In this document: piece by piece, positions 2,378 through 61,647 of the stretch
Layout: each line of letters begins with the position of its first letter
Position numbering within the stretch: the first letter of the stretch is position 1
Source of the DNA: Perkinsus olseni
Lineage: Eukaryota; Perkinsozoa; Perkinsida; Perkinsidae
Direction: 5' to 3'
Length of the DNA: 64,000 nucleotides
Assembly: GCA_013115135.1 (NCBI GenBank)
Contig: JABANP010000190.1
Location: 27,252 to 91,251 of the forward strand
Position numbers and translations under genes: made by a program
The notes under the pieces: generated by a model
Databases searched by the model: none
What the model saw: only the letters and a program-made list of their open reading frames with translations
What the model was told of the DNA's origin: nothing

Positions 2378-2680
2378 CTACATGGACACGCTGATTCGAG
2401 ATCGATTGCCTCCGGGAGCAAAACTGGTCTCAGGTTGGATTATTGCTCCATCGTGTTGCACACAGTCGAGGTGAGGCGGGAGGGACTCCCTCCGAGGGAG
2501 TGTAACGTCCGCCACTCTTCCTTCTGAGCTCACTCTTTCGAGCACGCTCTCAAGCTTGAAGGGCATCTTGTTGGTCTTGAAGTCCTGGGTCTGGGCACCA
2601 GATGCTGCAGACGCCCTTGGCAATGTGCTTAACACAACAGCGCAGAGTAAGCCGAGAGGCAGAATTGTACTTGCGTACAC
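2378..2680 (-). CDS. Possible small secreted protein (100 aa), doubtful
   Basis: The frame starts with a good signal-peptide-like segment (MYASTILPLGLLCAVVLS, then LPRASA) followed by a polar 75-residue tail with no known domain. I do not recognise it. A 22-bp scar of the type described under findings lies inside it at 2479-2500; a 14-bp gain shifts frame, so the C-terminal part is probably not original sequence. It could be the first exon of a gene or a decayed gene. The signal peptide alone is weak evidence. Confidence 0.3.
   Translation of the reverse strand: MYASTILPLGLLCAVVLSTLPRASAASGAQTQDFKTNKMPFKLESVLERVSSEGRVADVTLPRRESLPPHLDCVQHDGAIIQPETSFAPGGNRSRISVSM
2479..2500. repeat. Inverted-TSD scar, 8-mer GGAGGGAG
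   Basis: Seven bases of the 8-mer, its complete reverse complement, then bases 2-8 again; exact. It sits inside the doubtful frame 2378-2680. Confidence 0.8.
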
Positions 2681-2896
2681 CGCAACAAAATGGCTATGGT
2701 GGAATAGATCAAGATGATGACCTATAGAAACACAGCACTACGGAGTTACGCTGTACAGTGCTCACGGCAAAAAATCACAGCAATGAAGGGAAGAACATAA
2801 CAGCAAATACGAACTGTTCTGAACGAACACGACTTTACTAAGTGCAGCATATGGCGGTACCAATGGCGGAACAATATCAGGCATACAACCTGGAAA

Positions 2897-3307
2897 CTAC
2901 TTAATAGGTTTGAGTATTATTTGGGATTCATGATCAAGGTTGATGACGAAGAAGCCGCTGAAGAGATACATGTCTTGGAAGGCTTCCGGGTTCAGAGACA
3001 GACCGCAATCTTCCTTCAGAATCTTTCTATAATTCTCGAACGACTTCTTAGCGCCGAAAGTCAAAGTATAGTAATGAGGGCATCCTTCTCCGATAATTGG
3101 GAACTTTTGGTTGAAAGTAGTAATGGGACGAGATCCTGACTTCCTCTGATCTTCTGATGCCCAGCATTCAGTCGTGATCTCGTTGCTAGCAGTTGGATCG
3201 AAACCGAAGGAGATGCGGTACTTGTCGAACTCGTACCTGTAGTTGAACTGGAAAGCGCTTACAGTAGCCACTAGCAGCGGAAAGAGCAGCGTCAAGATGA
3301 TCACCAT
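2897..3307 (-). CDS. Small secreted protein, short member of the window's secreted family
   Basis: A 136-aa protein with a clear N-terminal signal peptide (MVIILTLLFPLLVATVSA, cleavage likely before FQ). The mature part keeps a reduced version of the cysteine pattern seen in the longer family members at 12887, 17414, 43504 and 45610: a Cys in ECWASE (about residue 48), a CP pair in GEGCPHYY, and KEDCGLSL near residue 103. It lacks the Y-R-C and G-P-Y segments and is about half the length of the others. It is probably exported or on the cell surface; function unknown. No intron is needed to read it. The start is the first Met and begins the hydrophobic segment directly. Confidence 0.65.
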   Translation of the reverse strand: MVIILTLLFPLLVATVSAFQFNYRYEFDKYRISFGFDPTASNEITTECWASEDQRKSGSRPITTFNQKFPIIGEGCPHYYTLTFGAKKSFENYRKILKEDCGLSLNPEAFQDMYLFSGFFVINLDHESQIILKPIK

Positions 3308-4094
3308 GCTGGGACAAAGCTAAGTCCTGAAAACGGGGTCAACCTGTCAGGTGAGCGGCCAACGTACCTCGTGTGCTAATTAATAGAAATTGCTCTCCCA
3401 GTCGTAGCACGCCCAAGGTGCGGTTGCCCAGCTATCAGCACGCGTTTAGTCGGTGGAGCCATATAGACGTCCTCCAGGAATCAGATTGGTCTCAGATAAG
3501 GTGGAATCGGAGCCCCTCGGCCGCGCTGTATTTTTGGGTACCTCAAGAGCGCACGATAGACCGCAGGTTGAGGCTTTATTTCGGCGAGGGGTTCTCGCGG
3601 AGCGCCGGACACTCGAAGATACAAGATCATAGTTGCTATCGCATATCTGCGGATAGGATTCTTGCTGGACATGGAGCAGAAGTTGCGCCGGCAGGCTCTG
3701 TCTCCTCTGTTGCACGAAGTAGGACGATGGTCATGATGCAACCAGTAGCATCCTTCTAGCTTCCCTTCAGTCAAGATGAGGGGGTATGCGCGACAGCAAG
3801 ACTACAGCTGCAGGAGTATCCTACTACTCTTGACATATGTTATTATGGCAATCGTTCAGTATGATTTATAGTACGGGGTTATTGAAGACACTCCCCCGGA
3901 GGCTCTCTGACAGAGGGTGTCCGCCCAGAGCCAGGAGCTGACTGACTAGGATTGGCCGATGTGTACCTTCGGAAACACTGCCGTAGCTTCGAGCTTGTAC
4001 GAGCGAGGTTCGAGGATTTGGCCACGGCTTGCAGCTCGCTGCTCATCTAGTAGCGTGACTCAACGTGCGCATGTGGCGGACTGTTCTGTATCGT
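3308..4094. other. Intergenic DNA, left flank of the LTR element
   Basis: No supported coding region. The last bases before 4095 do not match the bases after 10431, so no target-site duplication flanks the LTR element here. Confidence 0.5.
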
Positions 4095-4428
4095 TGTTGG
4101 TTTATCAGGCGCGGTACCCCGAGTGGCGACCAAGATATTTACAAGATTCTAGTCGAGTTGGCTAATGCGGTTGTTTAATAAGCGATGCACCCGGGTACGA
4201 TTCCGGCTTGCTGTACTTTTGTATTTGGTTGCTGTCCCATCATTGCGTATTTTATAGCTATTTATATTATCGATTACGCTATGGAGGGAGGGGGAGCCGT
4301 TGTCCTATATCGATTGATAAATAATCCTATTATCGGCCTCTGATGTCTGGTGTGGAGTCGACGAGTGATATGTCAATTGTGGGTGAGGATCACCCCTCGG
4401 TATCCCAATCCATCGGGACCAGTGAACA
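4095..4428 (+). repeat. 5' LTR (334 bp)
   Basis: Matches 10098-10431 at an offset of 6003 over its whole length, with TG at the start and CA at the end. The gag-pol start codon at 4343 lies inside it. Confidence 0.93.
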
Positions 4429-7400
4429 TGGTGCACCGTCCGGGAAAGATGGAAAGGGACCGGGGGACCTTCTCCGCAGGGCTATCGCAGCCGCGGCCCA
4501 ATCGACCACCGAGACAGGCTGGACGTGGTATAGTGATAAACTAACATGTCTACAGATAGTTGAGCACGCCATTGGCGCCAACCCGAAATCTACTGCGATA
4601 TCCCATATGCAATTCGTGGGAGCCGAAGGCAAGCCTATAGGCATTTCGCTGAAAGCTCTCTCGAAAAGCTGGGAGATTCAACAACACTGGGATGGTCCTA
4701 GGGAAGAGGGTTTGGAAAACCTTCGTTCTCGTAAGGGCTCCTGGCGTTGGACGAAGTTTCGCAGATTGTTGGATTTCTCACTTAGCGGTGTTCAGGGCAA
4801 TGCCTCACCGTTACGTCTATTAGCGTATAGTTTCTTCCTACCGCGTTCTGTAGTAGCTGAACTACGTCAGATAGTCGTAGATCACATTGTTACAGCAGAC
4901 GCAGAAGGAAAACCCACGCTCAATAGAGAAGCTGACATCTTCTCGTGGAAGGATATTCGCGAGCCAGATGATGTGAGTTCGAGCTCTACTGAGTATATCC
5001 TATCGGTCAAGAAGGCTTATGAGAAGTGGGTTAAGCAATGCTCCGAGTTCTGCAAGATAGCCGAAGACAAGATGACTCAGCTAGAGTCCTGTGAGGACTA
5101 TAGTAACCCAGTTTTACTCCTACGACGATGGTCGAGCCTATACAAGAAGGCTGGTCATGTGGAGTTTAGTAGGGTAGTTGAGGAGGAAGCCTTCCTATGT
5201 GGCAAGCTTTCAGAAACGAAAGGTTTGACCCTGGACTGGTCATTCCGTGCCTGCTTGTTCGAACTATTCCTACAGAGCTGCCCGCGAGCCCATAATCATG
5301 ACTCTGGGTTTGGCTCTTTGGTCAACGACGTTAGGAACAAGAGCACTTCTCCTCAAGACGTCCTCTCCAAGCTCCAAGCTACGGCTCTGCAGAACAAGGA
5401 GTCTTCTATTGATGATTACTTAGGGTTGGTCACTACTAAAGTGACTTCCCGAGAGAATCATCGGCCCAAGCGCCAATCTGATTATCAGAGTGCTATCCCC
5501 ATGGCCAAGCGGAGCAAGACGCAGCCAGGTTATAAGAACACGGCACGGGATACACAGAAACGGGCCAGTGAGGTCTTTCGCCTTCCGGCATCCGAGATTG
5601 CTCTAAGGAAGGAGCGAGGCCTCTGCTTCAAATGTAATCAACACGGTCACATAGCAAGCGAGTGCCCTAAGAAGACTCCTTACGCTGTTGAGAAGAACAA
5701 ACAACGTATCTCTGATGCTTCTACTAATAGTCAATCTGCCTACTTGCAGGATAGTGTAGAGTTGCCCACAAATGTTAATAGTGGTGGACGGATGGGGAAT
5801 GCGAATGAAACCGATGCTTCAGTAATGCTGACTGATAATAAAGATCAGCAGAAGCTAGCTGTGACAACAGTGATGGGCTCGACTTGTCCTTGCCCGAAGT
5901 CTGGCCAATACCTCATCCTACGCGCCGGGATAGACTCCATGGCGGGGGTGAATATGGTTAAACAAGGCATAGTTAACAAGCTTAAATGCACAGAAAGTCG
6001 GACGCAGAACCCAGTTGTCATACATGGAGTGAATAGTGTTAGCAAGCTCGATAGAGAGTGTACGATATATATATCGTTACACGATCGCCAAGCGAAGCTC
6101 TCATTCGCAATATGCAGAGACATCAGCCTTCCGAACTCAGTGGACTTGTTGATAGGCAAACCAAGCTTCGGTCTACTCGGCATCGATCTTGTCCTTCCGA
6201 GCCCAGCAGAGCAAGATGCCATCAAGAAGCCGAGCTTGAGTAGGACTAAGGAAGAGATGATTCGATACGGAGAGACATACCTAGTGGAGCTCTTACAGAA
6301 ACCGTATGCTCTCCCAGGTGCTTCCAAGTACCAGGGGACATTACAGAGGCTTGAGAAGGCTCCCGATAGTATTGATGTATCTGATCATCCGAGACAGTTA
6401 TACAAGTATGTAATAACGTGGAACGACAAAGACCTTAGAGCCCCAAAAAGCTCAGTAGGAGCGCTCGGGGGGTCGTATGATTACTCTTACCCGATCTTGA
6501 ATAGCATGACTGACAGTCAGCAACGGGAATTCCAACTAGAAGTTGATAACTTCATTAAACATAAATGGTGGGTACCCGAAACTGACGATCAGAGATTGAA
6601 TGACTCAGCAGACATAATGGGGAACGTTTGCACCTTCCCAGTGAGTCAATCCTTATTGAAATCAACAAAGGTGCGACCATGCACCGATTGTCGATCACTA
6701 AACGCAACATTGCCCCAGGCATCGTATGATGGATTTCCGATATTCGAAAGTATATCTCTAGTGAGGGCACGATGGAGTTCAGACTACACTCTTGCCTTCC
6801 TCGATTTGAGTAAAGCGTTTTATCGCCTACATTTAGGCAATAACAAAGCGCTACGTATACTATCGAATAACAAAAGATATACATGCCATAGAGTAGCATT
6901 TGGCCTAATCTTTGGGCCTGCCGCCCTCAGTGGAGCAGTTTTAACCCTGCTTAACACTAGTTTCTCGGCACTGCTAGGCCGAAAGATTGAATGCAACTCA
7001 ACACGAGACTTCATCGATTTGGTACCAGATTTATTCGTGGTACCTTATTACGATGACGTGGTAGTGTGGGGTAACGCAAGGCTGGTCCAGAGATTCACGG
7101 ACATCCTAGTGGAAATAGCTCCATTGATGGGAGCAGAGTTCCCCGAGACTAAGCAAGATTGGCTCACGAACAAAGAACAACAAGGCTCAACGCCAAATAG
7201 AGTTTATAGACACCTCGGTTGTAACTGGTCTCGGGACGAGGAGGGCAACCTGAGGATAGAATGCATTGTTCCTTCACGGAGCTCAATAATCATCCCGAAT
7301 CCGATGAGCCGCACAGACGCCTTCAGGCTGGGGGGTTACCTCTACGATCCTCTGAGGCTCCATCCATCTGCGAGGCTCTCAGCTGATGTGCTGCGCAGAT

Positions 7401-10066: not shown

Positions 10067-10083
10067 CGCAAAAATCAGCGCGC

Positions 10084-14896: not shown

Positions 14897-15000
14897 GTTA
14901 GTTGTGCCAGTGCACAGCCATGGAACCACAGCTCAAGCTTGACGAATCGTCTATGACGATAGTGACAGACCTTATCATCACTTCAACCGTTGAAGTTCAA
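14897..15000 (+). repeat. Diverged LTR-like copy, family A
   Basis: TTAGTTGTGCCAGTGCACAG followed by CCATGG and further matches resembles the first 50 bases of the 132-bp LTRs. The 3' part is obscured, in part by a scar at 14981-15002. No TSD seen. Confidence 0.4.
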
Positions 15001-15002
15001 CG
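14981..15002. repeat. Inverted-TSD scar, 8-mer CTTCAACG
   Basis: Exact 7 + 8 inverted + 7 architecture. Confidence 0.8.
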
Positions 15003-15039: not shown

Positions 15040-15061
15040 AGGGAGTGGCTCCCTGGGAGTC
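15040..15061. repeat. Inverted-TSD scar, 8-mer AGGGAGTC, one mismatch
   Basis: Both outer parts are exact. The inverted word reads GGCTCCCT instead of GACTCCCT, one transition. Confidence 0.6.
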
Positions 15062-15182: not shown

Positions 15183-15204
15183 ATTACAGACTGTAATTTA
15201 CAGT
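15183..15204. repeat. Inverted-TSD scar, 8-mer ATTACAGT
   Basis: Exact 7 + 8 inverted + 7 architecture. Confidence 0.8.
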
Positions 15205-16029: not shown

Positions 16030-16051
16030 TGACGAAGTTCGTCAGACGAAC
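16030..16051. repeat. Inverted-TSD scar, 8-mer TGACGAAC
   Basis: Exact 7 + 8 inverted + 7 architecture. Confidence 0.8.
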
Positions 16052-18891: not shown

Positions 18892-18913
18892 GTCACCGTC
18901 GGTGACTCACCGA
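18892..18913. repeat. Inverted-TSD scar, 8-mer GTCACCGA
   Basis: Exact architecture. The homologous repeat at about 47665-47672 has only a single similar 8-mer (CTGGTGAG on plus), so this is an insertion. Confidence 0.85.
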
Positions 18914-18940: not shown

Positions 18941-18962
18941 TTCAGAGCCTCTGAATCAGAGG
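18941..18962. repeat. Inverted-TSD scar, 8-mer TTCAGAGG
   Basis: Exact architecture. The homologous repeat at 47634-47641 has the single word (CCTCTGAA on plus) and no scar. Confidence 0.88.
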
Positions 18963-19051: not shown

Positions 19052-19618
19052 TTGTTTACTCCCCTAATCGTTCGGCCTCCAGCCTTCTGAAACATTGCAG
19101 TCAAGCTCACCGACTTCCTCGCACTGCAGAAACAAGTTGGGGCCCTGACGGCTGCTCTTGCAAGCAAGCAAGATAGAGTTATATTTAAGGAGACAGATGG
19201 CACCGAGACCAGCATCACCGATTATTTGACCAAAGTTGGTCAGAGAGTGAATACCATGGAGCAGGGTCTGATTGCTGTGACCAATGAAGTGAAAGCAATG
19301 GAATCGTGGGATGGAAGTTTGGACAGCAAGATCGACTCACAGTCCCATCTGCTCCGTTCGATCGCCGAGGCAGTACAAGCCAAGCCGCTTGCCGTTTCGT
19401 CAAGGAGCCTACCCCAGCAAAGCGCTGACCCCGTGTGTGAAGTGGTAATGAGCCCGACGGTAAGTGAAGTGGTGATGAGCCCGACGGTAACCGGCTCGAC
19501 AGAATATGGCACTGATGAAAGATTCAACGGTACTGGCTATTCAGGAACAACTTGTTCCGAACAAGACCCTTCGACTTCAGAACCAACGCGCGGGTCGTGG
19601 TATACGGTATTCCGGAAC

Positions 19619-28706: not shown

Positions 28707-28728
28707 CCCTGAGCCTCAGGGCCTGAGG
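28707..28728. repeat. Inverted-TSD scar, 8-mer CCCTGAGG
   Basis: Exact architecture. Confidence 0.8.
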
Positions 28729-29217: not shown

Positions 29218-30002
29218 TTAAGCGAGTTCGCGGACGGTAGACCGGGATTTTTGTACGGAAGTCGAAGATGACTGCGACAGGGATGCTGACGGTTCCGCAA
29301 AAAGATCAGTGCGCGTGGGATATCTCCAGCTAAGCGTGACCGTCCCACCCTGGTCAACAGGGATCAATCTAGGCGTATGAATGTACGCCTTCGGTGTACA
29401 CTTGAAGAAGATTTTCCCCTTAAGGCGCATGACCCGAGGCCAAAAAGCACAGGCGAAGTTTGCCCGAACGACGACGAGCCAGGCACTGGCAATGCCACAT
29501 TGCCGTTGATACCTTGCGAGCCCCTGCCTATACGTAGAGAACCACGATAATATCTTGTGGGTGCTATTCCAGCGCACCACCATATCCCTAGGTATGATGC
29601 GGAATCTATGACCATCAGGAAGGAACTCTTTTACAGACTGGTGAAGTAGATCGAACGTGTTGTTCCGAACATCATGTTCGATTGTCTAACGAAGCAGCCA
29701 TTAATACGGAGCTCTCTCGAGAGGCTTCCAATGACTTTGGTTGATCTATTTGTACTCCACTCCAAGGAGGCCTCATCGTAGGAGTCGTCAATATCAGCAG
29801 ATGCCTAGGACCCGTCGTCGTCGTCGTCGCCAGCGAGGGATTCCTCGTCTCGGAGCAGGTCTAGTTGTTCCTGTTGTTCACATTGGGGTGCTTCGAAACC
29901 TCCTGTCGACGTCAGTGCATTTTCGTCCGCTCCCTCCCCGGAATCACTAAACTGGTCGCTGGTTAGACGGTCTAACTTAGACCAGCCAAGCCCAGAAGCC
30001 AA
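29218..30002 (-). pseudogene. hAT-family transposase relic
   Basis: On the minus strand an acidic segment (about 30002-29808, ending in a run of Asp) is followed, after one in-frame TAG, by DIDDSYDEASLEW, then KVIGSLSRELRINGCFVRQ, then FDLLHQSVKEFLPDG and RDMVVRWNSTHKILSWF. The R-W-N-S-T box with upstream hydrophobic residues is the conserved block of hAT transposases. The two halves are in different frames only because of the 14-bp scar at 29659-29680; without it they are continuous. The catalytic N-terminal and C-terminal dimerisation regions were not found. It may be a relative of the source of the 8-bp-TSD MITE at 56730. Confidence 0.6.
29659..29680. repeat. Inverted-TSD scar inside the hAT transposase relic, one mismatch
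   Basis: 8-mer GATGTTCG; the first part reads GTTGTTC. Removing the net 14 bp rejoins the transposase frame on the minus strand. Confidence 0.75.
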
Positions 30003-31004: not shown

Positions 31005-31026
31005 AGACGAGACTCGTCTGACGAGT
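31005..31026. repeat. Inverted-TSD scar, 8-mer AGACGAGT
   Basis: Exact architecture. Confidence 0.82.
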
Positions 31027-31186: not shown

Positions 31187-31208
31187 TCCGACAGTGTCGG
31201 ACCGACAC
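31187..31208. repeat. Inverted-TSD scar, 8-mer TCCGACAC
   Basis: Exact architecture. Confidence 0.82.
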
Positions 31209-33762
31209 CGACTAAACACAACACACCCATTAGAAGCTGTTTCATTTAAAGGGTGACCGAGGTAAAGAAACTAAACGCGTCTTATTAGCGCGCGTTTCTT
31301 CATGCAACTCGGGCTGTCGCTGAATGCAACAGTCTTACCCCTAAAGGCAGTAGTCTGACTACAATATCAACCCGACGCTAGCAAGCATGCGGGCGACGTG
31401 ATTGAGAACTAGCGAAAAACCAACCAACACGTCAAGGCCCTTGACAAGCCCGGAAACACTTGGGCACGGCCAAGTGATAAAAAAGGTTTGGTAAGCGTAA
31501 CGCTCAGAGCGTCCATTATATGCACCCAGACTACGTACGAGACTCTTGTAACAAGAGTCTTTCTGAAGAGACTTCACCGGGCAAAATAATGCCAATCAAG
31601 ATTGTCGTGGAACGAAAGCCAAATAGAGCTTCTGTGGCAAGAAAGTAAACCTATAACCTCGTTTCACCATGTTCAGCGGGGCAGCAGCGGATATATCTTC
31701 AAATTCTGCCAACAATGTAGCCAAGATAACTGTCACCTCTCGAATGGCCAGGTATCGCCCGGGACAATAACGCGGACCGCCCCCAAAGGCAAGATGATGG
31801 CTGACGCGACTCGCATCCACGGTTTTCCCATCATCCCCAAACCACAGTTCAGGCCTAAAACATAATGAAATCGCCGCTCTGATCCTGCAGAACAGATCCT
31901 TGCCTGAAATATGTTCCACCATGTACGGGTTGGGACATCGCCTTCCGAAGGAGCAGGAGGAATGACGTGCGGGCGGGAAACTCTACGTCTGCGACGCTTG
32001 TAGCCCTCGGTATTGGAGAGCGCCATAACACCGAACGGAGGTTGGAGCTGCATACAACAAGACTCAGCCCTACGGAAGCCTTGCGAATATTGCGCAGTAC
32101 TCTCAATGTCTCCAAAACGCAGCATTGCAGGAAAGGTAAGCGTTCAGTATCTTCCTTTGTAGTCGAAATTATTCCTTCCATAGAGTCAACCTCAGCCCTC
32201 GCCCTGCGCTGTGCATCGGGATAGAGGCAGAAGTAGTAGAGCGCCCAAGATACAGTTACCGAGGCAGTGTCACTACCCGCTATCAAGAATCTGAGGACGT
32301 TGAAGATCTATCGCCAATACCACATCGGGCCGCAAATGCACGGGGAAATGCCCTCACGTAGATAGGTTTCCGATGAGGTCGTTCTCCGGAAGGGCCAGCA
32401 TTTTATCCAGCAGATCCGGCTTTTCACCAGACTTCGCCAACTTCCTGTCCTCTTTTCTTGCACGGATGATATCACCGCAATGTTCGTGTAGTAGCTTGGC
32501 ATACTTATGGTACTGACAGAAGAGGCGAATCAGTGGAATTAGTATGGCGATGATCTCATGCCCTACATTTTTCACTGCGGGGTCGAGGTTGAATGGAAAG
32601 ATGTTGCGAGTAGAGAGAGGAAAAGCGGCCCGCTCCAGACCGAGTGACACGCCTTCGAGATAGCCGTTAATAGTGTTCTGGACATCCTTTGATTTGCCAT
32701 TAACTGCCTCACCTACAGAGTTATTCACGCGGTAGCCCTAGACGAGACGAAGTTGAATTCCGTACCATCTCCACCAAGAAAGTTGAAGTCGATTCCAAAC
32801 GTCGTGACGCATAGAATGTCCAGTGAACAGCGCGGAATCCATTCTTCAGGTTTGCAAAGGATCCGCCCCTCTCGATCGCGAGATAACGCCTTAATTTCTT
32901 TTGCCTGACGAAAGCAGCAACTATAAGGCAGCAGTACTATTCACATTATGCACAATCGTTCGACCATCCTACCAGTTTTGATGCAACATGTGCTATCTTT
33001 GGGAGCATTGCATCGCAGTGCACCGCATTGAATGCAGGTGCTCCTAGTCTTCGGTTCCTCTTCCATGTTTCTCCTTCGCTATTCACCATTCCCTTAACCT
33101 CGGCCTCATCCTCGTTCATCCGCCGGATAAAAGTGGGTGACCAATTATTTTCAACACCATCATTCTTAACACACGGAGAATTTCATCACAAGGGTGGTTC
33201 GTGCCAACACTTAAGCAGCAATTTCAACACTTGCCATTGCAGAGAGTTTTACCTAACACTTCTTATTTCAACACATCCTAGTGTTGAAGAAGCCCTACCA
33301 GAAACAGTTTTTTTCAACACTGCAGTGGTCTTTTTAAACACTTAACTTTCTCCTGATTCTACGCTCCTTTGCGAGGCTGCGAACTTCGCAGATACTCTGT
33401 GCTAGAGAGTAACATGCCCCGTAGAAAAACCGAGTAGAAAAACCGACCGAGCCGGCTGAGAGCTGCAAATTAGTGCAAAACGCAAGACCGAATACGCCGG
33501 AAACACGGAGTTCACGATCCCTAGAGCAGGGAACACACATCGAAAAGACAGGAGGTCAGACATTCGATTAATTTGTGCACCGTTGAGTGACTTTCACTGG
33601 AAGGCTTCCGGAGTATACGCCCTCTGGAGGGTAGCATCTGTGTGACCAAGCGAGTGGTTGTGTGGAATACGCATTCGATTTACAATGAACTAGAAGTGTT
33701 GTATTTCCGAATTCCCGACCTCCGCTAATTCGGATTCGAAGAAGTTGAAGAAGTTTTCCGTG

Positions 33763-33784
33763 GTAACCAATGGTTACTAACCAT
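33763..33784. repeat. Inverted-TSD scar, 8-mer GTAACCAT (also at 59454-59475)
   Basis: Exact and present in both copies of segment C, so older than the duplication. Confidence 0.82.
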
Positions 33785-33871: not shown

Positions 33872-33893
33872 GGTTGGAGTCCAACCGTTGGAC
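33872..33893. repeat. Polymorphic inverted-TSD scar, left only, 8-mer GGTTGGAC
   Basis: Exact. The right copy has the single uninterrupted word at 59563-59570. Confidence 0.92.
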
Positions 33894-34847: not shown

Positions 34848-34869
34848 GAGCGGACTCCGCTCAGCGGAG
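34848..34869. repeat. Inverted-TSD scar, 8-mer GAGCGGAG
   Basis: Exact and present in both copies of segment C (right copy near 60538). Confidence 0.82.
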
Positions 34870-36176: not shown

Positions 36177-36198
36177 TCCGAGCGGCTCGGACCGAGCC
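36177..36198. repeat. Inverted-TSD scar, 8-mer TCCGAGCC (also at 55073-55094)
   Basis: Exact in both arms. Confidence 0.82.
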
Positions 36199-41120: not shown

Positions 41121-41142
41121 AAGACAGCCTGTCTTAGACAGG
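41121..41142. repeat. Inverted-TSD scar, 8-mer AAGACAGG
   Basis: Exact, both arms. Confidence 0.82.
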
Positions 41143-41307: not shown

Positions 41308-41329
41308 AGGCTCCTGGAGCCTGGCTCCA
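41308..41329. repeat. Inverted-TSD scar, 8-mer AGGCTCCA
   Basis: Exact, both arms. Confidence 0.82.
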
Positions 41330-44227: not shown

Positions 44228-45539
44228 CACTAAGAAAAGGCAAGTAAAAGCAAGTAGAGAATCTACGTCACGTAACGTACGTGCATTACGTGATCGATGA
44301 AGTTGGAAGTGTGGTCACTGGACTGTCTCCCGGACCCGGAGACTGTCGGGCACCCCATCAAGAGCTCGTCAGGAATCGAAGGTGAATTGCAGCTGAAGGG
44401 TGTAGCGTAGACGGGCAGCGGAAGAATCGATGGGCTTCTGCTCGTTGGGAGGATTCTGGTTATTCGACTTGTCTCTGCGTACACTTCACACAGGAAATCG
44501 CGCCACCGGAGCTGTCCCGGCGCCGAATCAAATCGGCATCGTCATCATTCGTTTTCGCAGGCTCCGGGTGGAGGATCTTCGCCCGTGAGAAGGAAGGAAT
44601 AGTCTGACGTTGAAGAGGGGATACAATCCGTCTGGGGCCCAGACTCTGGGCTGTCGGGGCCGAAGTAGTCAAGAATGCGTGGCTCGCGGTAATGGCCTGT
44701 CAGTCGCAGGTGACATCTCCGAGCTCGGCATCATCGAGAACCGTGTAGCACAGCAGGTACAAACCTTCTTTTCTCGATACGACGGCCTCTGGCCGTGAAC
44801 CCGCCGGACCACCCACATAGTTATTCGATTTTGATCTTGGACATCGCTGCAGGCCTGCGGACTCGATCATCTCCTCGGCATTGTAAGCGTGGGAGTTCGT
44901 AGAACTCGCCGAGTTCAACTCGGGCCGAGTTACTCGGCGCGTTCTGGGTGGATGACTGACTCAATTTGAGTTGACGAGCTGATGCCATGCCTGCCGCTAC
45001 GGGCGGCGCTCGAACTGAACGGCTCACATTGAGCCGTTTAACTTGTCCAAGCCACGTAGTCCTGCGTGCGGATTTGCGGCATTGACGAATCAGCAAGGGT
45101 AGAGGGTCCCAACAACCGAGCACGTGACACTTTGAAGCGCATCATGAGCGATCACTGACGCCGCTCAGATGTCTGTGCCTGCTTGTATCTCATTGAACCA
45201 GAACACAAGCGCCTCGAAATCTGAAGCGAGTCAGCCTGTCGCAGCAGGTGACACTAAGCGACACTAGCCGTGAAACTGTTGCCTTTGACGAGATTGTTAT
45301 GAGAACGAGAATGTCAAAGTAACGAAATCGTATTTGACAGTGAAATTTATGTCAAAATTTTTTGAGCTTCGAAAGATGCGCTGTAGCACCAACTAGATCA
45401 TGCTCATAACCGATTCAAACAACAATGCGTGCAACTTCACACTGTGCTGACCACAGTGTGATCGTTACAATGCAACGAACATTGAGTTGACTATGCAGTA
45501 TAGCGTGGCAGAGCTGTTCAGTACTAATATAATGGACAG
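44228..45539. other. Intergenic DNA with a tandem double scar
   Basis: No supported gene. ACGT-rich words lie at 44262-44295, just upstream of the broken secreted gene. A double scar lies at 44902-44938. Confidence 0.45.
44902..44938. repeat. Two overlapping inverted-TSD scars in tandem (GAACTCGG, then AACTCGGC)
   Basis: The first scar is 44902-44923 and the second 44917-44938; both are exact. The second uses the last part of the first as its target, so two events hit the same place. Confidence 0.85.
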
Positions 45540-46389: not shown

Positions 46390-47559
46390 GAGCTACTCCT
46401 GCGGAAAGCCTTCATAAGAAGCTCGATGGAACAGCCCTTCCCAGAGATATTTTTCTCAGGCTGAAAGAAATCGAAGCGGGTTGTGACTGCGGCAGTTCTA
46501 GCGCAATCGACGCACCAGGGGAGCACGTGGTGTTGCCCGGGACTGTCTCCGGAGAAGGTTGGTCCTCGAGCGACTTCGGGAAATTACGCTGCTTATTTAA
46601 CAGATAGGAAAGGACAGCATTTGGTGGTCCAAGTGCATCAGACGGCCTGATCGGAGTCAGAGCCGAGTCATAGAGCTATTCATGTCTAATGTGGCTTAAA
46701 ATATGGCGCCGGCCATGCTGTCCCCAGTGCCCTTGGAAGGCAGCCTCTCATGCGTTCGTCGGCGCCTCGGTGCGGTCTCTGGTGACTACATGGGCAGTGA
46801 TTTGATTTGACCGTGAGACTGTGGGCCACCGCTCGTGGCGAGGCGATGGAACGCCCTACCGAATGTCGTTCTCGACATTTGCTGTAGTTTGAAACCGCGA
46901 AGCTCCGACTGCGAAAGAGAGCCGCTTTCTCGCCGACACAACGCACTCGTACGCAAGCACTCCTACGAAATCCATGGCGCGTCGGACATTCTGGCTGTCA
47001 CAGCGTAAAAGTGATCGTATATGCCTTTTGTTGGACGTAGGACTGAGTCCTACGGTAGGAGTTCTTCATGTGCCAAGATTCTTGATCCACCTCTCACGAC
47101 AATCTTGATTCTCTCCTTGGAGAAAGTTATCTTTGTTACACTCTCTCCTTGAAAAGTGATGACCCCACCTCTGGACTGAGTGACCGCCGTAGCTGGGGTA
47201 TTGATTCAATACTCTGAACCCTGTATTGGGTCTGGAAAAGCCACGCCATGATGACATTGACGCGACCAGTTACCGCCGGAGACAGCCACCATAGCACTGC
47301 CAGCGCAGGGCTTGGCCCATCGTCTTGAAGGCAATGATTGATTAGCCATCAGTTGATTGTACGACCATCGTTTCGATGACAATGAGATGTGTCTTCTCGA
47401 AGCTTTCCTTATACACCGTCCTGTATGTGGTATAGTCGCCACGTCTCTCAGTACAAAAAAGATCCTGCTACGCCGTAGCAGCTACGGCGGCGCGAATAGC
47501 CCTTAGAGCCCCACGAAATGCCTCCAACTCCGCACCTGTCATCGCCGCAGGATTAACCT
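46390..47559. other. Intergenic DNA in the spacer
   Basis: No supported gene. A block at about 47395-47465 matches 16762-16830. A scar lies at 47466-47487. Confidence 0.45.
47466..47487. repeat. Inverted-TSD scar, 8-mer TGCTACGG
   Basis: Exact architecture. Confidence 0.82.
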
Positions 47560-48581: not shown

Positions 48582-48603
48582 ACCACTCCGAGTGGTCCAC
48601 TCG
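48582..48603. repeat. Polymorphic inverted-TSD scar, right only, 8-mer ACCACTCG
   Basis: Exact. The left arm has the single word (CGAGTGGT) at 41443-41450. Confidence 0.92.
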
Positions 48604-49249
48604 AGTATCACGTCTCTCGCAGTTCACCCGTGAGACCAATACTGCGAATGAGTGCATACTAGATTGGACAACAGCGCTAACCCACAGAACTATGGCACGC
48701 CACCGTGGCATAGAACTGGAGCCAGGCTCCAGGAGCCTGCCGTTTAGTTCCGATTTAGAATGTTTTCGCACCGTTTCATTCCTCAAGTCATGTTATTAGT
48801 TATCGTCGCAACCTGAGAAGTACTCAGTAACTCATGCACTGGGTCCTCATCACTGAGGACTCCTCAGGTCATCCGTGAGCCAATCATGGTTACAATACAA
48901 TAACCTGTCTAAGACAGGCTGTCTTTCGTTCCTAGAGACATATGCATTGTGTTAATCATATTGACACAACATAAACCTCAGACTGTGAAGCTTGAAGTAT
49001 GGATATGATGGTGCTAATGAGAGGTAAGCGGACACCACCTTACGATCGGAATGGGGATCACAAAAAATGCGAAAACTGTTGCCGATGAGCTTCACTTTAG
49101 ATCTTGGCAGTGCTAGCCTATTCTAGCTGCAACTGCATGTGTAGAAGATCCTGTAGCATCTTTATAGCAGCCGAAATTCGAGCATATCCCAAGTTAGGAT
49201 TCCTAACCTAGCAGGTCTCTCCAGTATCTGATAGGTTTTCTGCGGTTCT

Positions 49250-54687: not shown

Positions 54688-55133
54688 CACTATAGTGATA
54701 ACTACCTCCATTGCTGCTACGCACTTTGGTCTTTGTTCGCATTTGCGGTTGTGCGCACAATGTGCGGCCAATCGTCCCGGCTATCGGGTGCTGTCCTCCT
54801 CACGATACTGAATACACGTTTTTCCTAAACTCCTCTCGAGTCCGGTTCATCATTCGATGAATAGCCAGTAGCTACAGGCCACACTGTACTGACACAACGA
54901 GCAAGTGTGCATAGCAAGTTTGGGATTGAGGGTACCGTACCATCGGTACGCAGCAGCAATCGAGGTCTTTGCCATTATATTGCACAGTATACGCTCCGCT
55001 CGCTTCGCAATAAAACGTACTAGCAACACGGTGGTGTGCTGAAAGTTGGTGTGTTTGACTCATGAGGGGGACGGCTCGGTCCGAGCCGCTCGGAGGCGGA
55101 AGAATACACGAACAATGCACATGGAAATCAGAA

Positions 55134-55155
55134 GGCACTGCCAGTGCCGCACTGG
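55134..55155. repeat. Polymorphic inverted-TSD scar, right only, 8-mer GGCACTGG
   Basis: Exact. The left arm has the single word (CCAGTGCC) at 36130-36137. Confidence 0.93.
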
Positions 55156-55223
55156 ATTAGGGGTTGGATACAATCGTCCTTGTGCGGACGCCGCACAATC
55201 TGTGGTACAAAAGAATGGTTGTC

Positions 55224-55245
55224 GTCGTGAATCACGACTCGTGAT
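55224..55245. repeat. Polymorphic inverted-TSD scar, right only, 8-mer GTCGTGAT
   Basis: Exact. The left arm has the single word (ATCACGAC) at 36054-36061. Confidence 0.93.
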
Positions 55246-56084: not shown

Positions 56085-56411
56085 CGGATCAGCTTCAGAT
56101 CCGGGTAACCCGTACGTGTATGCCATGCATGCATGCTGTTCTACAACGGGTGTCCATACCGACGCGTTACTATGCATGAGCCGATCGATACTGAGTTAAA
56201 ACGTATCACTCTGACTTCACAACTCGACAAAGCAAATAGCGAAGACAGTCACTGTTTGACGGTGTGTAGTGACGAGACACTCGCGATATGGACTCTCCCT
56301 CCGAACACCCAACTCGCAAACCACGAGAAGTACCCTTTCTCGAGCCGAGAATCTCGGCTAGGGGAAACTGCATCCTATCGTTGAATATGGTGCGATACAT
56401 CGCGCCGCAGC
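56082..56411 (-). repeat. Duplicated segment B, right copy
   Basis: Reverse complement of 28328-28656. It overlaps the preceding palindrome by TGT and the following segment by GC. Confidence 0.9.
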
Positions 56412-56542
56412 CAAGTGATAAAAAAGGTTTGGTAAGCGTAACGCTCAGAGCGTCCATTATATGCACCCAGACTACGTACGAGACTCTTGTAACAAGAGTC
56501 TTTCTGAAGAGACTTCACCGGGCAAAATAATGCCAATCAAGA

Positions 56543-58852
56543 TTGTCGTGGAACGAAAGCCAAATAGAGCTTCTGTGGCAAGAAAGTAAACCTATAACCT
56601 CGTTTCACCATGTTCAGCGGGGCAGCAGCGGATATATCTTCAAATTCTGCCAACAATGTAGCCAAGATAACTGTCACCTCTCGAATGGCCAGGTATCGCC
56701 CGGGACAATAACGCGGACCGCCCCCAAAGCAGTGTTGGCATAAAGGTCGTCCTATTTTTCCTTTTCGCGTTTTCCCGCCTTTTCTTTCCGCCGCAATTCA
56801 CCACTGTTTATTAGGGTTGAACGACGAAATTTTCGGCTGCTAAGCAGAATGCACGTTACAACTGTGGTCGCCCTTCGCCTCTGTTCTCTCTGTAGCAAGA
56901 GACCCATTGGATGCCGTGTCACGTGCACGCATGCGCAAGTGTGACTCACACAAAGTGTGTCAAGTGTGAGTCACGCTGATCAGACGTCACACTGTGTGAC
57001 GCCTGATCATACTCCTTATCGAATCTTCTCCTAAAATTCTCCTTTGTCTTAACTACAACGATACTCTTATCAGCGGCATACTAGTAAATTTCCAATTTTT
57101 CGGCACCTGGTACCTTACAGCGGTTCGATCATCTGTAGCCGCTTATTGACTCTATCTCTTTTCCCTACTGATGGCCGCCTGATCCGGGTATTGAGGTTCG
57201 AGTTGAATTCAATCGAAGCTTCTGATTTAAAAGTGCTGCTTCCGATATCGAGAGAGTACCGATGTAGAATACGGAGCGTCCGGAGGTTCTCGGGCGCGCT
57301 TTCTGAACAAGATCGCTGGCGAAACCTGCCGGGGTACGCATGAAGAAGCTTCGGATGTAGCCGAAGGAATTTCAGAAAAACACTATTTTCCGCTATTTTC
57401 CTATTTCAACAAAAAAATTACCAGAAAGAAAAAAATAATCTATTTTTCCACGTTTATGCCAATACTGCCCCAAAGGCAAGATGATGGCTGACGCGACTCG
57501 CATCCACGGTTTTCCCATCATCCCCAAACCACAGTTCAGGCCTAAAACATAATGAAATCGCCGCTCTGATCCTGCAGAACAGATCCTTGCCTGAAATATG
57601 TTCCACCATGTACGGGTTGGGACATCGCCTTCCGAAGGAGCAGGAGGAATGACGTGCGGGCGGGAAACTCTACGTCTGCGACGCTTGTAGCCTCGGTATT
57701 GGAGAGCGCCATAACACCGAACGGAGGTTGGAGCTGCATACAACAAGACTCAGCCCTACGGAAGCCTTGCGAATATTGCGCAGTACTCTCAATGTCTCCA
57801 AAACGCAGCATTGCAGGAAAGGTAAGCGTTCAGTATCTTCCTTTGTAGTCGAAATTATTCCTTCCAGAGAGTCAACCTCAGCCCTCGCCCTGCGCTGTGC
57901 ATCGGGATAGAGGCAGAAGTAGTAGAGCGCCCAAGATACAGTTACCGAGGCAGTGTCACTACCCGCTATCAAGAATCTGAGGACGTTGAAGATCTATCGC
58001 CAATACCACATCGGGCCGCAAATGCACGGGGAAATGCCCTCACGTAGATAGGTTTCCGATGAGGTCGTTCTCCGGAAGGGCCAGCATTTTATCCAGCAGA
58101 TCCGGCTTTTCACCAGACTTCGCCAACTTCCTGTCCTCTTTTCTTGCACGGATGATATCACCGCAATGTTCGTGTAGTAGCTTGGCATACTTATGGTACT
58201 GACAGAAGAGGCGAATCAGTGGAATTAGTATGGCGATGATCTCATGCCCTACATTTTTCACTGCGGGGTCGAGGTTGAATGGAAAGATGTTGCGAGTAGA
58301 GAGAGGAAAAGCGGCCCGCTCCAGACCGAGTGACACGCCTTCGAGATAGCCGTTAATAGTGTTCTGGACATCCTGTGATTTGCCATTAGCTGCCTCACCT
58401 ACAGAGTTATTCACGCAGTAGCCCTAAACGAGACGAAGTTGAATTCCGTACCATCTCCACCAAGAAAGTTCAAGTCGATTCCAAACGTCGTGACGCATAG
58501 AATGTCCAGTGAACAGCGCGGAATCCATTCTTCAGGTTTGCAAAGGATTCGGCCCTCTCGATCGCGAGATAAGGCCTTAATTTCTTTTGCCTGACGAAAG
58601 CAGCAACTATAAGGCAGCAGTACTATTCACAGCATGCACAATCGTTCGACCATCCTACCAGTTTTGATGCAACATGTGCTATCTTTGGGAGCATTGCATC
58701 GCAGTGCACCGCATTGAATGCAGGTGCTCCCAGTCTTCGGTTCCTCTTCCATGTTTCTCCTTCGCTATTCACCATTCCCTTAACCTCGGCCTCATCCTCG
58801 TTCATCCGCCGGATAAAAAGTGGGTGACCAATTATTTTCAACACCATCATTC
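56543..58852 (-). pseudogene. Cytochrome P450, 3' two thirds, right copy, interrupted by a MITE
   Basis: Same exons as 31596-33169: LRMMVLKIIGHPLF, EGETWKRNRRLGAPAFN, IAGSDTASVTVSWALYYF, ETLR, LQPPFGVMALSNTEATS and the haem region. The frame after SNTE is intact here, unlike the left copy. The MITE at 56730-57467 splits the exon just at the haem loop (between CCCCAAAG target copies). The 5' exons are on the other strand, so the locus is dead. Confidence 0.82.
56730..57467. mobile_element. hAT-type MITE (738 bp), 8-bp TSD CCCCAAAG
   Basis: Terminal inverted repeats CAGTGTTGGCATAAA and TTTATGCCAATACTG match at 14 of 15 positions. The duplication CCCCAAAG lies at 56722-56729 and 57468-57475. 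The left copy has the single empty target at 31781-31788. A CAG-start TIR with an 8-bp TSD is diagnostic of hAT. There is no transposase inside. Internal GTGTGAC-type repeats lie at about 56937-57010. Confidence 0.95.
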
Positions 58853-59676
58853 TTAACACACGGAGAATTTCATCACAAGGGTGGTTCGTGCCAACACTTA
58901 AGCAGCAATTTCAACACTTGCCATTGCAGAGAGTTTTTTTCCTAACACTTCTTATTTCAACACATCCTAGTGTTGGAAGAAGCCCTACCAGAAACAGTTT
59001 TTTTCAACACTGCAGTGGTCTTTTTTAAACACTTAACTTTCTCCTGATTCTACGCTCCTTTGCGAGGCTGCGAACTTCGCAGATACTCTGTGCTAGAGAG
59101 TAACATGCCCCGTAGAAAACCGAGTAGAAAAACCGACCGAGCCGCCTGAGAGCTGCAAATTAGTGCAAAACGCAAGACCGAATAGGCCGGAAACACGGAG
59201 TTCACGATCCCTAGAGCAGGGAACACACATCGAAAAAGACAGAAGGTCAGACATTTGATTAATTCGTGCACCGTTGAGTGACTTTCACTGGAAGGCTTCC
59301 GGAGTATACGCCCTCTAAAGGGTAGCATCTGTGTGACCAAGCGAGTGGTTGTGTGGAATACGCATTCGACTTACAATGAACTAGAAGTGTTGTATTTCCG
59401 AATTCCCGACCTCCGCTAATTCGGATTCGAAGAAGTTGAAGAAGTTTTCCGTGGTAACCAATGGTTACTAACCATGCTATTACTCGATGAACTACTTGCC
59501 GTGGTTTTCAGTCCATCCACGTCGGTAGGGTGGACCTGGAGAGCTTTGAACTTCTTGAAACGGGTTGGACGTCCCCATTATCATGCCGTTTCCTTCCCTG
59601 TACGATTTTTGGCGGAGGTATCTGGGGAAAGGATATCACAGGAAGATGTCCTAGTCAACGAATCGTAAGAGCAGAC

Positions 59677-60060
59677 TTAAGTACCTTGGTGGTTCGAAGT
59701 AGACGAGTGTCGAGCTGTTTCCCTGGGAAAAACTTCGGCAGAGCTTCGACTACTCCTAGTAGTCAAAGTTCCAGAGACCAGAGAAGCAATCTCAGAGACC
59801 ATCGCCGGAGAAGTCCCCTCCTCATTGTCATTTTCTGCTCTGCTAACGAGGCAAACATGATAACATTGCCTAGACTGGCAACACATAGGACATGTACATA
59901 TCCGCATACCACGTGGGTCCCATAGCGTACGGACGAACTTTATCTCGTAGATACTATACACCTGTTCCACCCAATCGCGGGGATTCTTATGCCTCCTGCT
60001 TTGCCGAGCACCCACAGCTGCCCCGTCTAGAGATCGCGACTGCCGAGATGAGCTCGCCAC
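59677..60060 (-). CDS. Unassigned 127-aa Cys-rich frame, right copy
   Basis: Same as 34000-34383 with one visible residue change (Pro to Phe near the C-terminus). Confidence 0.33.
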   Translation of the reverse strand: MASSSRQSRSLDGAAVGARQSRRHKNPRDWVEQVYSIYEIKFVRTLWDPRGMRICTCPMCCQSRQCYHVCLVSRAENDNEEGTSPAMVSEIASLVSGTLTTRSSRSSAEVFPRETARHSSTSNHQGT

Positions 60061-60227
60061 ATAATACCGTAGGTGCGGCGTGGCTGTGTATACAATATGT
60101 GGATCACATTCCTGAACTTTAGCCAGGGAAGCTGGCTGAGGTTCGAGCCGCGTAGAGCAAGTTTTGCTATCATCGGTCTATATCATCGGTTTTCCAGGAA
60201 CTACACGAGTGGCTGGTATTACAAGCA

Positions 60228-60249
60228 GGCGTAGTCTACGCCGCGTAGA
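60228..60249. repeat. Polymorphic inverted-TSD scar, right only, 8-mer GGCGTAGA
   Basis: Exact. The left copy has the single word at 34551-34558. Confidence 0.93.
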
Positions 60250-60790
60250 GCGACTCGAATCTATGCGTTCGTCAGCAAATCGACGAGAATAGATGGCAGA
60301 AGTGTCACTCATTTCGAGGGGGGGGGCGCAAAGTAAAGCTGGGCGAGCCGCAGTAACCAATCATTGAGACTCTGAAGAATGGAGCTTGGGCAGAAGCCAG
60401 GCGCCACTAACGAGTCGTTAGTAACGATATCAACGCAACACAGACTAGGGCGAGAAACATACTGAACGTTAACCCAGGATCGATGCGAGAACGGCAAGCG
60501 TAATATAAGCAAAAGGCAAGGAGCGGAAGGGTTCGGGGAGCGGACTCCGCTCAGCGGAGACAGATATGAAGGTGCTCAAATAACAACTCTGATAGGCGAA
60601 GTGCCGTTCACGAATATGTATGTAAGTGTTGCAAAAACCAGCAAAACAACGATCTTTCGCAACACTCAAAAAGTGTTAAAAATGATGATGGTGAAAAAAG
60701 ACTGCCGAACAAAAGAGTTGAAAATGACAGTGCAAGTGGTGCAAAAACAGGTGTTTAGAAAAACTCCGGTGAGGAAAAACGATTTACTCG

Positions 60791-61647
60791 TCATACATCC
60801 ACTCCACGAGTGCGGCCGAGGATGGCTCGACGGCGTGCGTCCCCTCTTATCGTTCTCACCTTGTTGGTGTATCTAGTGCCAATTAAACGTTCGCTTTATT
60901 GTTTCGTGTTCTAGCAGTGTCGATGGCTGATGTACTGGAGTGGCACAACGTTTGGTGTTGTGCCTCATGATGAGACTCTTCGGCCGTAGACTACGGCCCG
61001 TAGCACTCCTCGCTGGGATTAGCTATGGGTCTGCGGAGGAGGGCCTCTCCGTGTCACGCTATTTGCAGGTGTATTCGGCCTCCTAATTTCTCAACGCGAT
61101 ATCCTTCGAACACGAATTTCTGAGTGAGCACAAGCAATATCACGAGGAACCAATCTGGCGGAAATGGCGCCGTCGCCCGCCGACTGTTGCCACTGAGGGC
61201 CGGAAGTTTGTCTTAGGCCGGAGAACCTGTCGAAGGGCAAATTCTCCCACTTGATTGCGGCGTGCACGCACGTGAACTGTGCAAGCTCATGAGAATTCGA
61301 TCTGAACCCATATCAGCCTTGTCTCTATATGTCTCTGATATATGTCTCAGCCTTGTCTCACGATATAGCGTCACTCCCTTTCCCGCTCGGCTATAACGTG
61401 AGGACGTCACCGTCTCTCGTGACGTGACGTCTCTCGTGACGTGACGTCTCTCGCGACGTGACGGCGCCACGTCACGCCCTGGTGTCACGAGGGATTAAGC
61501 CTGGCAACGTTCACAATGGGCTAGACCATCTCCTGTACTCCGGGCCTTTTACCCTTCCCCGTATCATCTAATGCTTCTATCTCGCTTGTGGGTCAGATCC
61601 GCTGATCTATTGTGTGTTGTAGCGTCTGAGACCTATCCAACATCTCA
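60791..61647. other. Intergenic DNA upstream of the last secreted gene
   Basis: No gene seen. It includes a one-mismatch scar at 60983-61004 (8-mer GCCGTAGT) and the CGTCAC-rich tandem repeat at 61411-61461. Confidence 0.5.
61411..61461 (+). promoter_or_regulatory. 17-bp tandem repeat of GTGACGTGACGTC-type words, candidate promoter element
   Basis: Three copies of CGTCTCTCGTGACGTGA (third with one change), 190-240 bp upstream of the secreted gene at 61648, flanked by further CGTCAC words. Similar words cluster upstream of other secreted genes in the window. Confidence 0.5.

What the first reader, a model, noticed from the sequence alone, without database searches (positions are those of the whole stretch)
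2479..61004. About 30 scars of one fixed architecture: N1-7, full reverse complement of N1-8, N2-8
Seen directly. Exact scars start at 2479, 14981, 15183, 16030, 18892, 18941, 28707, 31005, 31187, 33763, 33872, 34848, 36177, 41121, 41308, 44902, 44917, 47466, 48582, 55134, 55224 and 60228. One-mismatch scars start at 15040, 16106, 28381, 29659, 34717, 40839, 41941 and 60983. The 8-mers differ from each other. Fourteen of the 22 positions are fixed by the others, so chance expectation in 64 kb is about 64000/4^14, roughly 0.0002 exact scars. None was found in the LTR elements. The geometry is what hAT excision predicts if a nick one base outside each end makes flank hairpins and one hairpin is opened exactly at the far end of the 8-bp TSD. 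Usual hAT footprints vary; a constant 14-bp gain suggests a dedicated repair or cutting step, or a different mechanism (8-nt staggered break with double template switch).
Basis: partly seen in the sequence, partly recalled or inferred. Interest (0 to 1): 0.95.

Follow-up and report, generated by a model that had tools for sequence, protein, structure and literature searches.

The report
Uniform scars of jumping-gene excision
This Perkinsus-like genome carries many 22-base scars, each made from an 8-base target as forward copy, backward copy, forward copy; they look like the trace left when a hAT-type jumping gene leaves and the break is mended in one nearly fixed way, which is unusual because such breaks are normally mended in many different ways.

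Summary
All 22 claimed exact and 8 claimed one-mismatch scars check out; the window holds 31 exact ones, with none at word lengths 6, 7 and 9-13. In 318 kb of the same genome 100 exact scars fit the rule; among joins of two TSD hairpins the 14-bp gain stands alone (100 against 0 in the control; gains 13 and 15: 0). Duplicated sequences show a +14 bp event on a plain 8-bp site: of 138 indel events 27 are 14 bp long, and all 27 are scars (26 distinct). The spliced leader is that of Perkinsus. The base next to each former element end is complemented, the target favours T2/A7, and hAT elements with 8-bp TSDs are present, one in the window. I read the scars as hAT excision footprints: both flank hairpins opened at the TSD edge and joined over 8 complementary bases. 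hAT origin is likely (about 0.8); the joining step is inferred (about 0.5). Not shown: an element in one copy and the scar in another. Variable hAT footprints are known; a uniform, genome-wide one was not found in the papers searched.

The parts
800..821 (.). exact scar, W=ATTTGGAC
2479..2500 (.). exact scar, W=GGAGGGAG
14981..15002 (.). exact scar, W=CTTCAACG
15183..15204 (.). exact scar, W=ATTACAGT; paralog L002 lacks 14 bp here
16030..16051 (.). exact scar, W=TGACGAAC; paralog L002 is gapped here (alignment split)
18892..18913 (.). exact scar, W=GTCACCGA
18941..18962 (.). exact scar, W=TTCAGAGG; empty in paralog at 47634-47641
19544..19565 (.). exact scar, W=GGAACAAG
28707..28728 (.). exact scar, W=CCCTGAGG
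29962..29983 (.). exact scar, W=GTTAGACC
31005..31026 (.). exact scar, W=AGACGAGT
31187..31208 (.). exact scar, W=TCCGACAC
33763..33784 (.). exact scar, W=GTAACCAT; empty in L118, second copy at 59454
33872..33893 (.). exact scar, W=GGTTGGAC; empty in duplicate at 59563-59570
34848..34869 (.). exact scar, W=GAGCGGAG; second copy at 60538
36177..36198 (.). exact scar, W=TCCGAGCC; second copy at 55073
41121..41142 (.). exact scar, W=AAGACAGG; second copy at 48904
41308..41329 (.). exact scar, W=AGGCTCCA; second copy at 48717
44630..44651 (.). exact scar, W=GTCTGGGC
44902..44923 (.). exact scar, W=GAACTCGG; overlaps the next scar by 7 bases
44917..44938 (.). exact scar, W=AACTCGGC; target one base off that of the neighbouring scar
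47466..47487 (.). exact scar, W=TGCTACGG
48582..48603 (.). exact scar, W=ACCACTCG; inverted copy empty at 41443-41450
48717..48738 (.). exact scar, copy of 41308
48904..48925 (.). exact scar, copy of 41121
55073..55094 (.). exact scar, copy of 36177
55134..55155 (.). exact scar, W=GGCACTGG; inverted copy empty at 36130-36137
55224..55245 (.). exact scar, W=GTCGTGAT; inverted copy empty at 36054-36061
59454..59475 (.). exact scar, copy of 33763
60228..60249 (.). exact scar, W=GGCGTAGA; direct copy empty at 34551-34558
60538..60559 (.). exact scar, copy of 34848
15040..15061 (.). one-mismatch scar (majority rule); the other 24 start at 284, 1000, 2088, 12799, 12877, 13919, 14939, 16106, 28381, 29189, 29659, 30109, 31536, 34717, 37548, 40839, 41941, 48068, 49186, 52478, 56337, 56477, 60407, 60983
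29659..29680 (.). one-mismatch scar in a stretch related to hAT loci; empty in copies L013 and L014
56730..57467 (.). 738-bp hAT-type element, TIRs CAGTGTTGGCATAAA / CAGTATTGGCATAAA
56722..56729 (+). left 8-bp target site duplication CCCCAAAG
57468..57475 (+). right 8-bp target site duplication CCCCAAAG
31781..31788 (+). empty site of that element in the direct duplicate (single CCCCAAAG)

Best explanation
Each scar is the footprint of a hAT-type DNA transposon that sat in an 8-bp target W=N1..N8 (duplicated on insertion) and was cut out. Transposase nicks one base outside each 5' end (recalled from hAT biochemistry), and the freed 3'-OH closes the flank into a hairpin: left N1..N7-N8'..N1', right N8'..N2'-N1..N8. 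Both hairpins are then opened at the outer edge of the TSD, leaving 3' tails that end in rc(W) and in W. These 8-base tails are exactly complementary, anneal, and are filled in and ligated, giving N1-7 + rc(N1-8) + N2-8, a 22-bp scar with a net gain of 14 bp. The edge may be found without a ruler: when the two hairpins cross-pair, pairing ends where the TSD ends, so a junction-cutting enzyme would cut there. Shown: the rule, the 14-bp gain over a plain 8-bp site, recurrence, the target preference, and hAT elements with 8-bp TSDs in this genome. Inferred: that excision made the scars, and the opening and annealing steps.
For: 14-bp insertions in duplicated sequence are scars in 27 of 27 cases of 138 indel events; six empty partners inside the window carry one W. 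Among joins F(p,q) of two offset hairpins p+q=8 stands alone: 100 exact in 318,045 bases against 0 in one Markov control, 0 at gain 13, 0 at gain 15, classical p=q=1 footprint 4 against 5. k=8 versions without the one-base offset: 0 in the window. W favours T2/A7: 77 of 186 positions in 93 unique scars, P 3e-7 (tested after seeing the pattern); Hermes prefers nTnnnnAn (PMC10368747, passages). hAT dimerisation domain at 21 loci, one in a 581-aa open frame with DUF4371. Elements with TIRs and 8-bp TSDs, three with an empty paralog. Two scars abut a TAGAGATGGGC element end in exact register.
Against: No locus was found with the element in one copy and the scar in another; filled sites whose paralogs could be judged were plainly empty in them. 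In the all-against-all comparisons 26 distinct scars stand beside one insertion with an 8-bp TSD (two more were found by looking for them). T2/A7 bias at the hAT ends themselves is weak or absent: 13 of 34 at TAGAGATGGGCA ends (P 0.05), 5 of 14 for TSDs known on both sides, 5 of 22 at ends of the CAGTRTTGGC family (P 0.66). The abutting scars have two mismatches each, the one in L006 could be a 7-bp tandem repeat, and 0 of 26 further loci with that TIR word showed one. Known hAT footprints vary from event to event, so uniformity needs a cause of its own.
Confidence: 0.6

Rival explanations
1. One reading: hAT excision, but one hairpin is opened at its tip and the other at its base, or more generally the two openings leave P-nucleotides adding up to 8, and the ends are joined without annealing.
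For: All splits with p+q=8 give the same 22 letters, so sequence cannot tell them apart.
Against: Needs two cuts coordinated to a fixed sum; independent cuts would also give gains of 13 and 15, of which there are 0 in 318,045 bases.
Confidence: 0.17
2. Aborted insertion: the hairpins form straight after strand transfer, when gap filling has reached N7, so the element leaves almost at once and there is no lasting filled stage.
For: 26 distinct scars beside one insertion in the all-against-all comparisons, and no filled-versus-scar pair was found.
Against: The same imbalance follows if elements simply jump often; lasting insertions with 8-bp TSDs do exist.
Confidence: 0.12
3. No transposon: an enzyme makes an 8-nt staggered break, and fill-in with two template switches (or hairpin closure of the filled ends) builds the scar.
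For: No element has been seen at a scar locus in another copy.
Against: Does not by itself predict the loss of exactly one base on each side or the T2/A7 preference; template switches without homology would hardly be exact 100 times.
Confidence: 0.07
4. Another superfamily with 8-bp target duplications (Merlin, P, others) is responsible.
For: Merlin makes 8- or 9-bp TSDs, and two preserved ORFs and remnants are reported from Perkinsus marinus (PMC8101967, passages).
Against: No Merlin domain match in this genome. The P-element search also found nothing, but its control did not ring either. Other superfamilies were not searched. The one-base offset fits hAT.
Confidence: 0.04

Closest known systems
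Ac/Ds excision footprints in Candida albicans, yeast and plants (PMC5873905, passages)
   Same: Inverted (P-nucleotide) repeats centred on the complement of the base next to the transposon, explained by flank hairpins and end joining, often with microhomology.
   Different: 28 footprint types among 128 revertants there, with P-nucleotides of at most 3 nt (arms up to 20 nt in yeast). Here one type, with 7-bp arms on both sides sharing one rc(W).
TcBuster footprints in HEK-293 cells (PMC3499496, passages)
   Same: hAT element, hairpin model, small complementary insertions.
   Different: Variable insertions of a few bases and deletions up to 50 bp.
Natural DNA transposon excisions between two rice species (PMC4423477, passages)
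   Same: Excision traces read from genome comparison.
   Different: Mostly deletions and filler of varied size; 8 of 94 left exactly two TSD copies; only nine hAT transpositions among its polymorphisms.
mPing repair using TSD microhomology (PMC4561436, title and start of abstract in listings)
   Same: The TSD guides the join.
   Different: The outcome there is precise repair; here TSD-guided annealing of opened hairpins would add 14 bp.
Hermes transposase (PMC10368747, passages)
   Same: 8-bp target with nTnnnnAn preference.
   Different: The passages read treat the transpososome, not donor-site repair in a protist.

Membership tests
hAT excision footprint | Built on an 8-bp target duplicate | tested here: met
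   Only k=8 in excess; empty partner has one 8-bp W
hAT excision footprint | Inverted repeats centred on the complement of the base next to the element (one-base offset hairpins) | tested here: met
   k=8 offset form 31 in the window, k=8 forms without the offset on either or both sides 0
hAT excision footprint | hAT-like target preference | tested here: met
   T2/A7 77 of 186 in scars, P 3e-7; Hermes nTnnnnAn. Weak or absent at this genome's own hAT ends
hAT excision footprint | Cognate element seen at the same locus in another copy or strain | tested here: inconclusive
   None found; filled sites with readable paralogs were empty, not scarred; no second strain available
hAT excision footprint | Depends on transposase | not testable with these tools
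   needs an experiment
hAT transposons in this genome | hAT C-terminal dimerisation domain | tested here: met
   21 matches at E up to 0.001, all over the cut-off; Pfam hit in L009
hAT-type non-autonomous element at 56730-57467 | TIRs with 8-bp TSD at an otherwise empty site | tested here: met
hAT-type non-autonomous element at 56730-57467 | Moved by a hAT transposase that recognises these TIRs | not tested
   no autonomous partner with the same TIR was sought or identified; its hAT label rests on TIR look (recalled) and TSD length
Merlin (considered) | DDE_Tnp_IS1595 transposase domain in the genome | tested here: not met
   0 matches; control rang in one genome
P element (considered) | Tnp_P_element domain in the genome | tested here: inconclusive
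   0 matches, but no control genome rang either

The most novel reading that the evidence does not exclude
This lineage mends hAT excision breaks by one dedicated, template-like route: both hairpins are cross-paired, cut where TSD homology ends, and joined over 8 bases, so that every excision writes the same 14-bp gain. This makes a readable, genome-wide and datable record of every jump, and a mutation process among the commonest indels of this genome.
Probability: 0.5. Interest if true: 0.87.

Novelty: new variant of a known kind. Interest (0 to 1): 0.82.

Why it matters
In the papers seen here, hAT hairpin repair is read from reporter assays, where outcomes are mixed. Here one outcome dominates the sampled genome, so the hairpin-opening and joining steps become testable by sequence alone, past jumps could be counted and dated, and a 14-bp gain (which breaks the reading frame) becomes a frequent, recognisable mutation: it is the commonest indel length after 1 bp. 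In three near-identical duplications of the window, five scar differences stand beside 68 substitutions.

Tried and rejected
Chance: rejected by the k=4-13 scan, 100 Markov simulations, the trimmed and untrimmed forms and the hairpin-join family. Some longer trimmed forms are not zero (k=9 with trims 1 and 3: 9 and 8; k=10 with trims 3 and 3: 4); by their letters these are the same scars where a flanking base happens to pair. A second scar family hinted at by 15-base palindromes with loops of 3 and 5 was an artefact of counting stems outward from the loop; 75% of the loop-3 cases pair inside the loop, as the scars do. Assembly artefact: unlikely, since exact scars with different W lie in 10 of 20 stretches and in paralogs of 75-99% identity.

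Filled-versus-scar pairs: sought in the window, around the CAGTRTTGGC elements and around the TAGAGATGGGC ends; none found. Paralogs that stopped being homologous at the junction could not be judged.

Tandem insertion with loss of one element was considered for the two abutting scars (L014 1227-1248, L006 1968-1989), but reinsertion into a scar explains them equally well; no abutting scar was seen in the 26 other TAGAGATGGGCA loci read. Of the 35 places with that word, 34 were read; the one at the start of contig C904 was not. Two of the 26 (L110, L112) are probably not element ends, as the word runs on in a paralog.

Loss of classical end joining as the reason for uniformity: not supported, as one Ku exon match just over its cut-off and one DRMBL (Artemis/Pso2 class, recalled) match are present.

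Abundant 270-bp repeat at 30434-30703: looked at as a possible element; no clear TIR or TSD seen by eye.
Full report
What is there. Let W=N1..N8. The scar is N1-7, then the reverse complement of N1-8, then N2-8 (22 bp). The rule is its own reverse complement, so it has no strand. The window holds 31 exact scars; k=6, 7 and 9-13 give none, k=5 one and k=4 twenty. All 22 exact and 8 one-mismatch claims are right; by majority rule there are 31 exact, 25 with one and 25 with two mismatches. Counted against the middle word, the mismatch classes 0, 1, 2, 3 hold 31, 17, 25 and 26, against means of 0, 0, 0.2 and 3.2 in five Markov simulations. No exact scar appeared in 100 Markov simulations. Twenty 10-kb stretches of the same genome give 34 exact and 21 one-mismatch scars, with exact ones in 10 of 20 stretches. 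By simple proportion the 61-Mb assembly would hold on the order of 10,000 exact scars (inference; the stretches were contig starts, not a random draw).

Organism. The spliced leader CCGTAGCCATCTTGGCTCAAG or a one-letter variant occurs 87 times, 0 times in the reversed control. It equals the last 21 letters of PmaSL1 of Perkinsus marinus as printed in PMC3101222 (passages). Genus Perkinsus or a close relative is therefore very likely. The species was not determined; 61 Mb against 87 Mb for P. marinus (PMC7789003, passages) and the lack of a Merlin match speak for another species, weakly.

It is an event, not a motif. In duplicated sequence the same site occurs with and without 14 bp. Of 138 indel events, 27 are 14 bp long; 52 are 1 bp long, and the next commonest length above 4 bp is 7 bp with 5. 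Of the 27, 17 are exact scars, 6 have one and 3 have two mismatches; one (L021) could not be scored there because it lies near an end, and scores one mismatch. Two of the 27 (33764, 59461) are one scar seen in two copies, so 26 are distinct. Left out of that count were L037 (a tandem array), L001 and L044 (which repeat the window), alignments under 70% identity or 100 columns, and gaps that lie within 10 columns of another gap or between poorly matching flanks. An earlier, stricter run on fewer loci gave 21 of 21 among 136 events. One more pair, L069 with the scar and L133 without, was read by eye. The empty partner carries a single W: within the window at 41443, 36130, 36054, 34551, 59563 and 47634 for the scars at 48582, 55134, 55224, 60228, 33872 and 18941; over 28 bases three of these partners match fully, those of 48582 and 18941 have one and that of 33872 three mismatches. 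Where three copies could be compared, one has the scar and two do not (L003 434 and 989 against L006 and L017; window 29659 against L013 and L014), so gain rather than loss is the likely direction.

Rate. The three near-identical duplications differ by 28, 37 and 3 substitutions over 5192, 3301 and 1827 aligned bases, and by 1, 2 and 2 scars. The second scar of the 3301-bp pair (33872) is split by the aligner into gaps of 7 and 8. Exact scars lie in long open frames less often than expected: 2 of 65 in frames of 250 codons or more, which cover 22% of the bases, and 9 of 65 in frames of 150 codons or more, which cover 39%, as expected for a frame-breaking mutation. The scar-free stretch 4095-10431 is bounded by repeats 99.7% alike, so it may simply be young.

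Why hAT. (1) If transposase nicks one base outside each end and closes the flanks (recalled biochemistry; the matching footprint rule is in PMC5873905, passages), the left hairpin reads N1..N7 N8'..N1' and the right one N8'..N2' N1..N8. The scar has N8' directly after N7 and N1' directly before N2; k=8 forms without this offset number 0 in the window. (2) W prefers T at 2 and A at 7: 77 of 186 in 93 unique scars against 24.5%, P 3e-7, while T1/A8, T3/A6 and T4/A5 give 27, 53 and 47. This was tested after the pattern had been seen. Hermes prefers nTnnnnAn (PMC10368747, passages; also PMC8721813, passages). (3) The genome has 21 matches to the hAT dimerisation domain, one in a 581-aa open frame with DUF4371. 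(4) A 738-bp element at 56730-57467 has TIRs CAGTGTTGGCATAAA / CAGTATTGGCATAAA and the TSD CCCCAAAG, and its direct duplicate has the empty site at 31781. Three relatives have TSDs GGTAGAAG, CGCGGAGA and GGTTGATG, the last two with empty paralogs. A second family with TIR TAGAGATGGGC or a close variant has TSDs GTCTGATG in L004 and GTCCGGAG in L006. (5) Two scars abut an end of that second family in exact register; about 0.03 would be expected for 40 ends (40 is a rounded number, somewhat more ends were looked at). Both have two mismatches, the L006 case may be a 7-bp tandem repeat, and none of 26 further loci shows one.

Why the joining step matters. Let the left and right hairpins be opened so that p and q bases of rc(W) remain. 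Direct joining gives a gain of 6+p+q. In 318,045 bases (window, 19 of the 20 stretches, 21 hAT loci) gain 14 stands out: 100 exact against 0 in one Markov control, with 0 at gain 13 and 0 at gain 15. The simple footprint p=q=1 gives 4 against 5. Other excesses are small: single hits at gains 16 and 20, low counts at gains 9-12 (at most 11 against 1 for one form), and 257 against 90 for the bare 6-base direct repeat at gain 6; these were not followed up. All splits with p+q=8 give the same letters. The simplest cause of an exact sum is that both hairpins are opened fully (p=q=8), leaving 3' tails that end in rc(W) and W; these pair over 8 bases and fill-in gives the scar. This is inference. One way to find the edge without a ruler is that the two hairpins cross-pair and pairing stops where the duplicated target stops.

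What is missing. No locus was found with an element in one copy and a scar in another. Flanks of elements were searched in the genome and junctions of some of the paralogs were read: where homology crosses the junction, the partner reads as an empty site. So the step from hAT excision to scar is argued from anatomy, not seen. The hAT ends themselves show little T2/A7 bias: 13 of 34 at TAGAGATGGGCA ends (P 0.05), 5 of 14 for TSDs known on both sides, and 5 of 22 at CAGTRTTGGC ends (P 0.66), against 38 of 154 in control 8-mers. The first two sets together do not differ from the scars (Fisher P 0.74), but they are few.

Known and new. Hairpin-derived inverted footprints are established for Ac/Ds and TcBuster, where they vary (PMC5873905; PMC3499496; passages read). 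Rice comparisons show mostly deletions and filler (PMC4423477, passages). Searches for Perkinsus with transposon and palindrome words, for hAT excision footprints, for dinoflagellate excision footprints and for P-nucleotide footprints (listings) showed no title or abstract that reports a uniform scar of this kind in the open-licence library; most papers behind those listings were not opened, and subscription papers were not searchable. I file it as a new variant of a known kind.

Noticed in passing
window 35245-42259 and 47772-56054: Large inverted duplication, arms 98-99% alike by BLAST (3 and 28 substitutions), with about 5.5 kb between the arms; it may be real or an assembly feature.
   Followed up: partly
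window 31469-35100 and 56410-60790: Direct duplication of about 3.6 kb, 97.7-100% alike, the second copy holding the 738-bp element.
   Followed up: partly
window 52982-54199: 1218-bp insert with about 130-bp terminal repeats and a 5-bp overlap at the empty site in the inverted copy, as for a small LTR-type element; similar repeats at 12244-12375 and 25138-25269.
   Followed up: no
window 44902-44938: Two exact scars overlapping by 7 bases, targets one base apart: the same spot was hit twice.
   Followed up: partly
L004 2563 and 2662, L013 1226 and 1325: The same two scars sit inside two copies of a hAT-related sequence, so the scars are older than the copying of that sequence.
   Followed up: no
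window 30434-30703: About 270-bp repeat with 29 other places at roughly 79-93% identity in a capped list; nature unknown.
   Followed up: no
318 kb pooled sequence: The 7+7 form with a 6-base direct repeat (gain 6) occurs 257 times against 90 in the control; may be tandem repeats or another process.
   Followed up: no
L037 (C401:1-10000): Tandem array with many self-matches; left out of the pooled counts.
   Followed up: no
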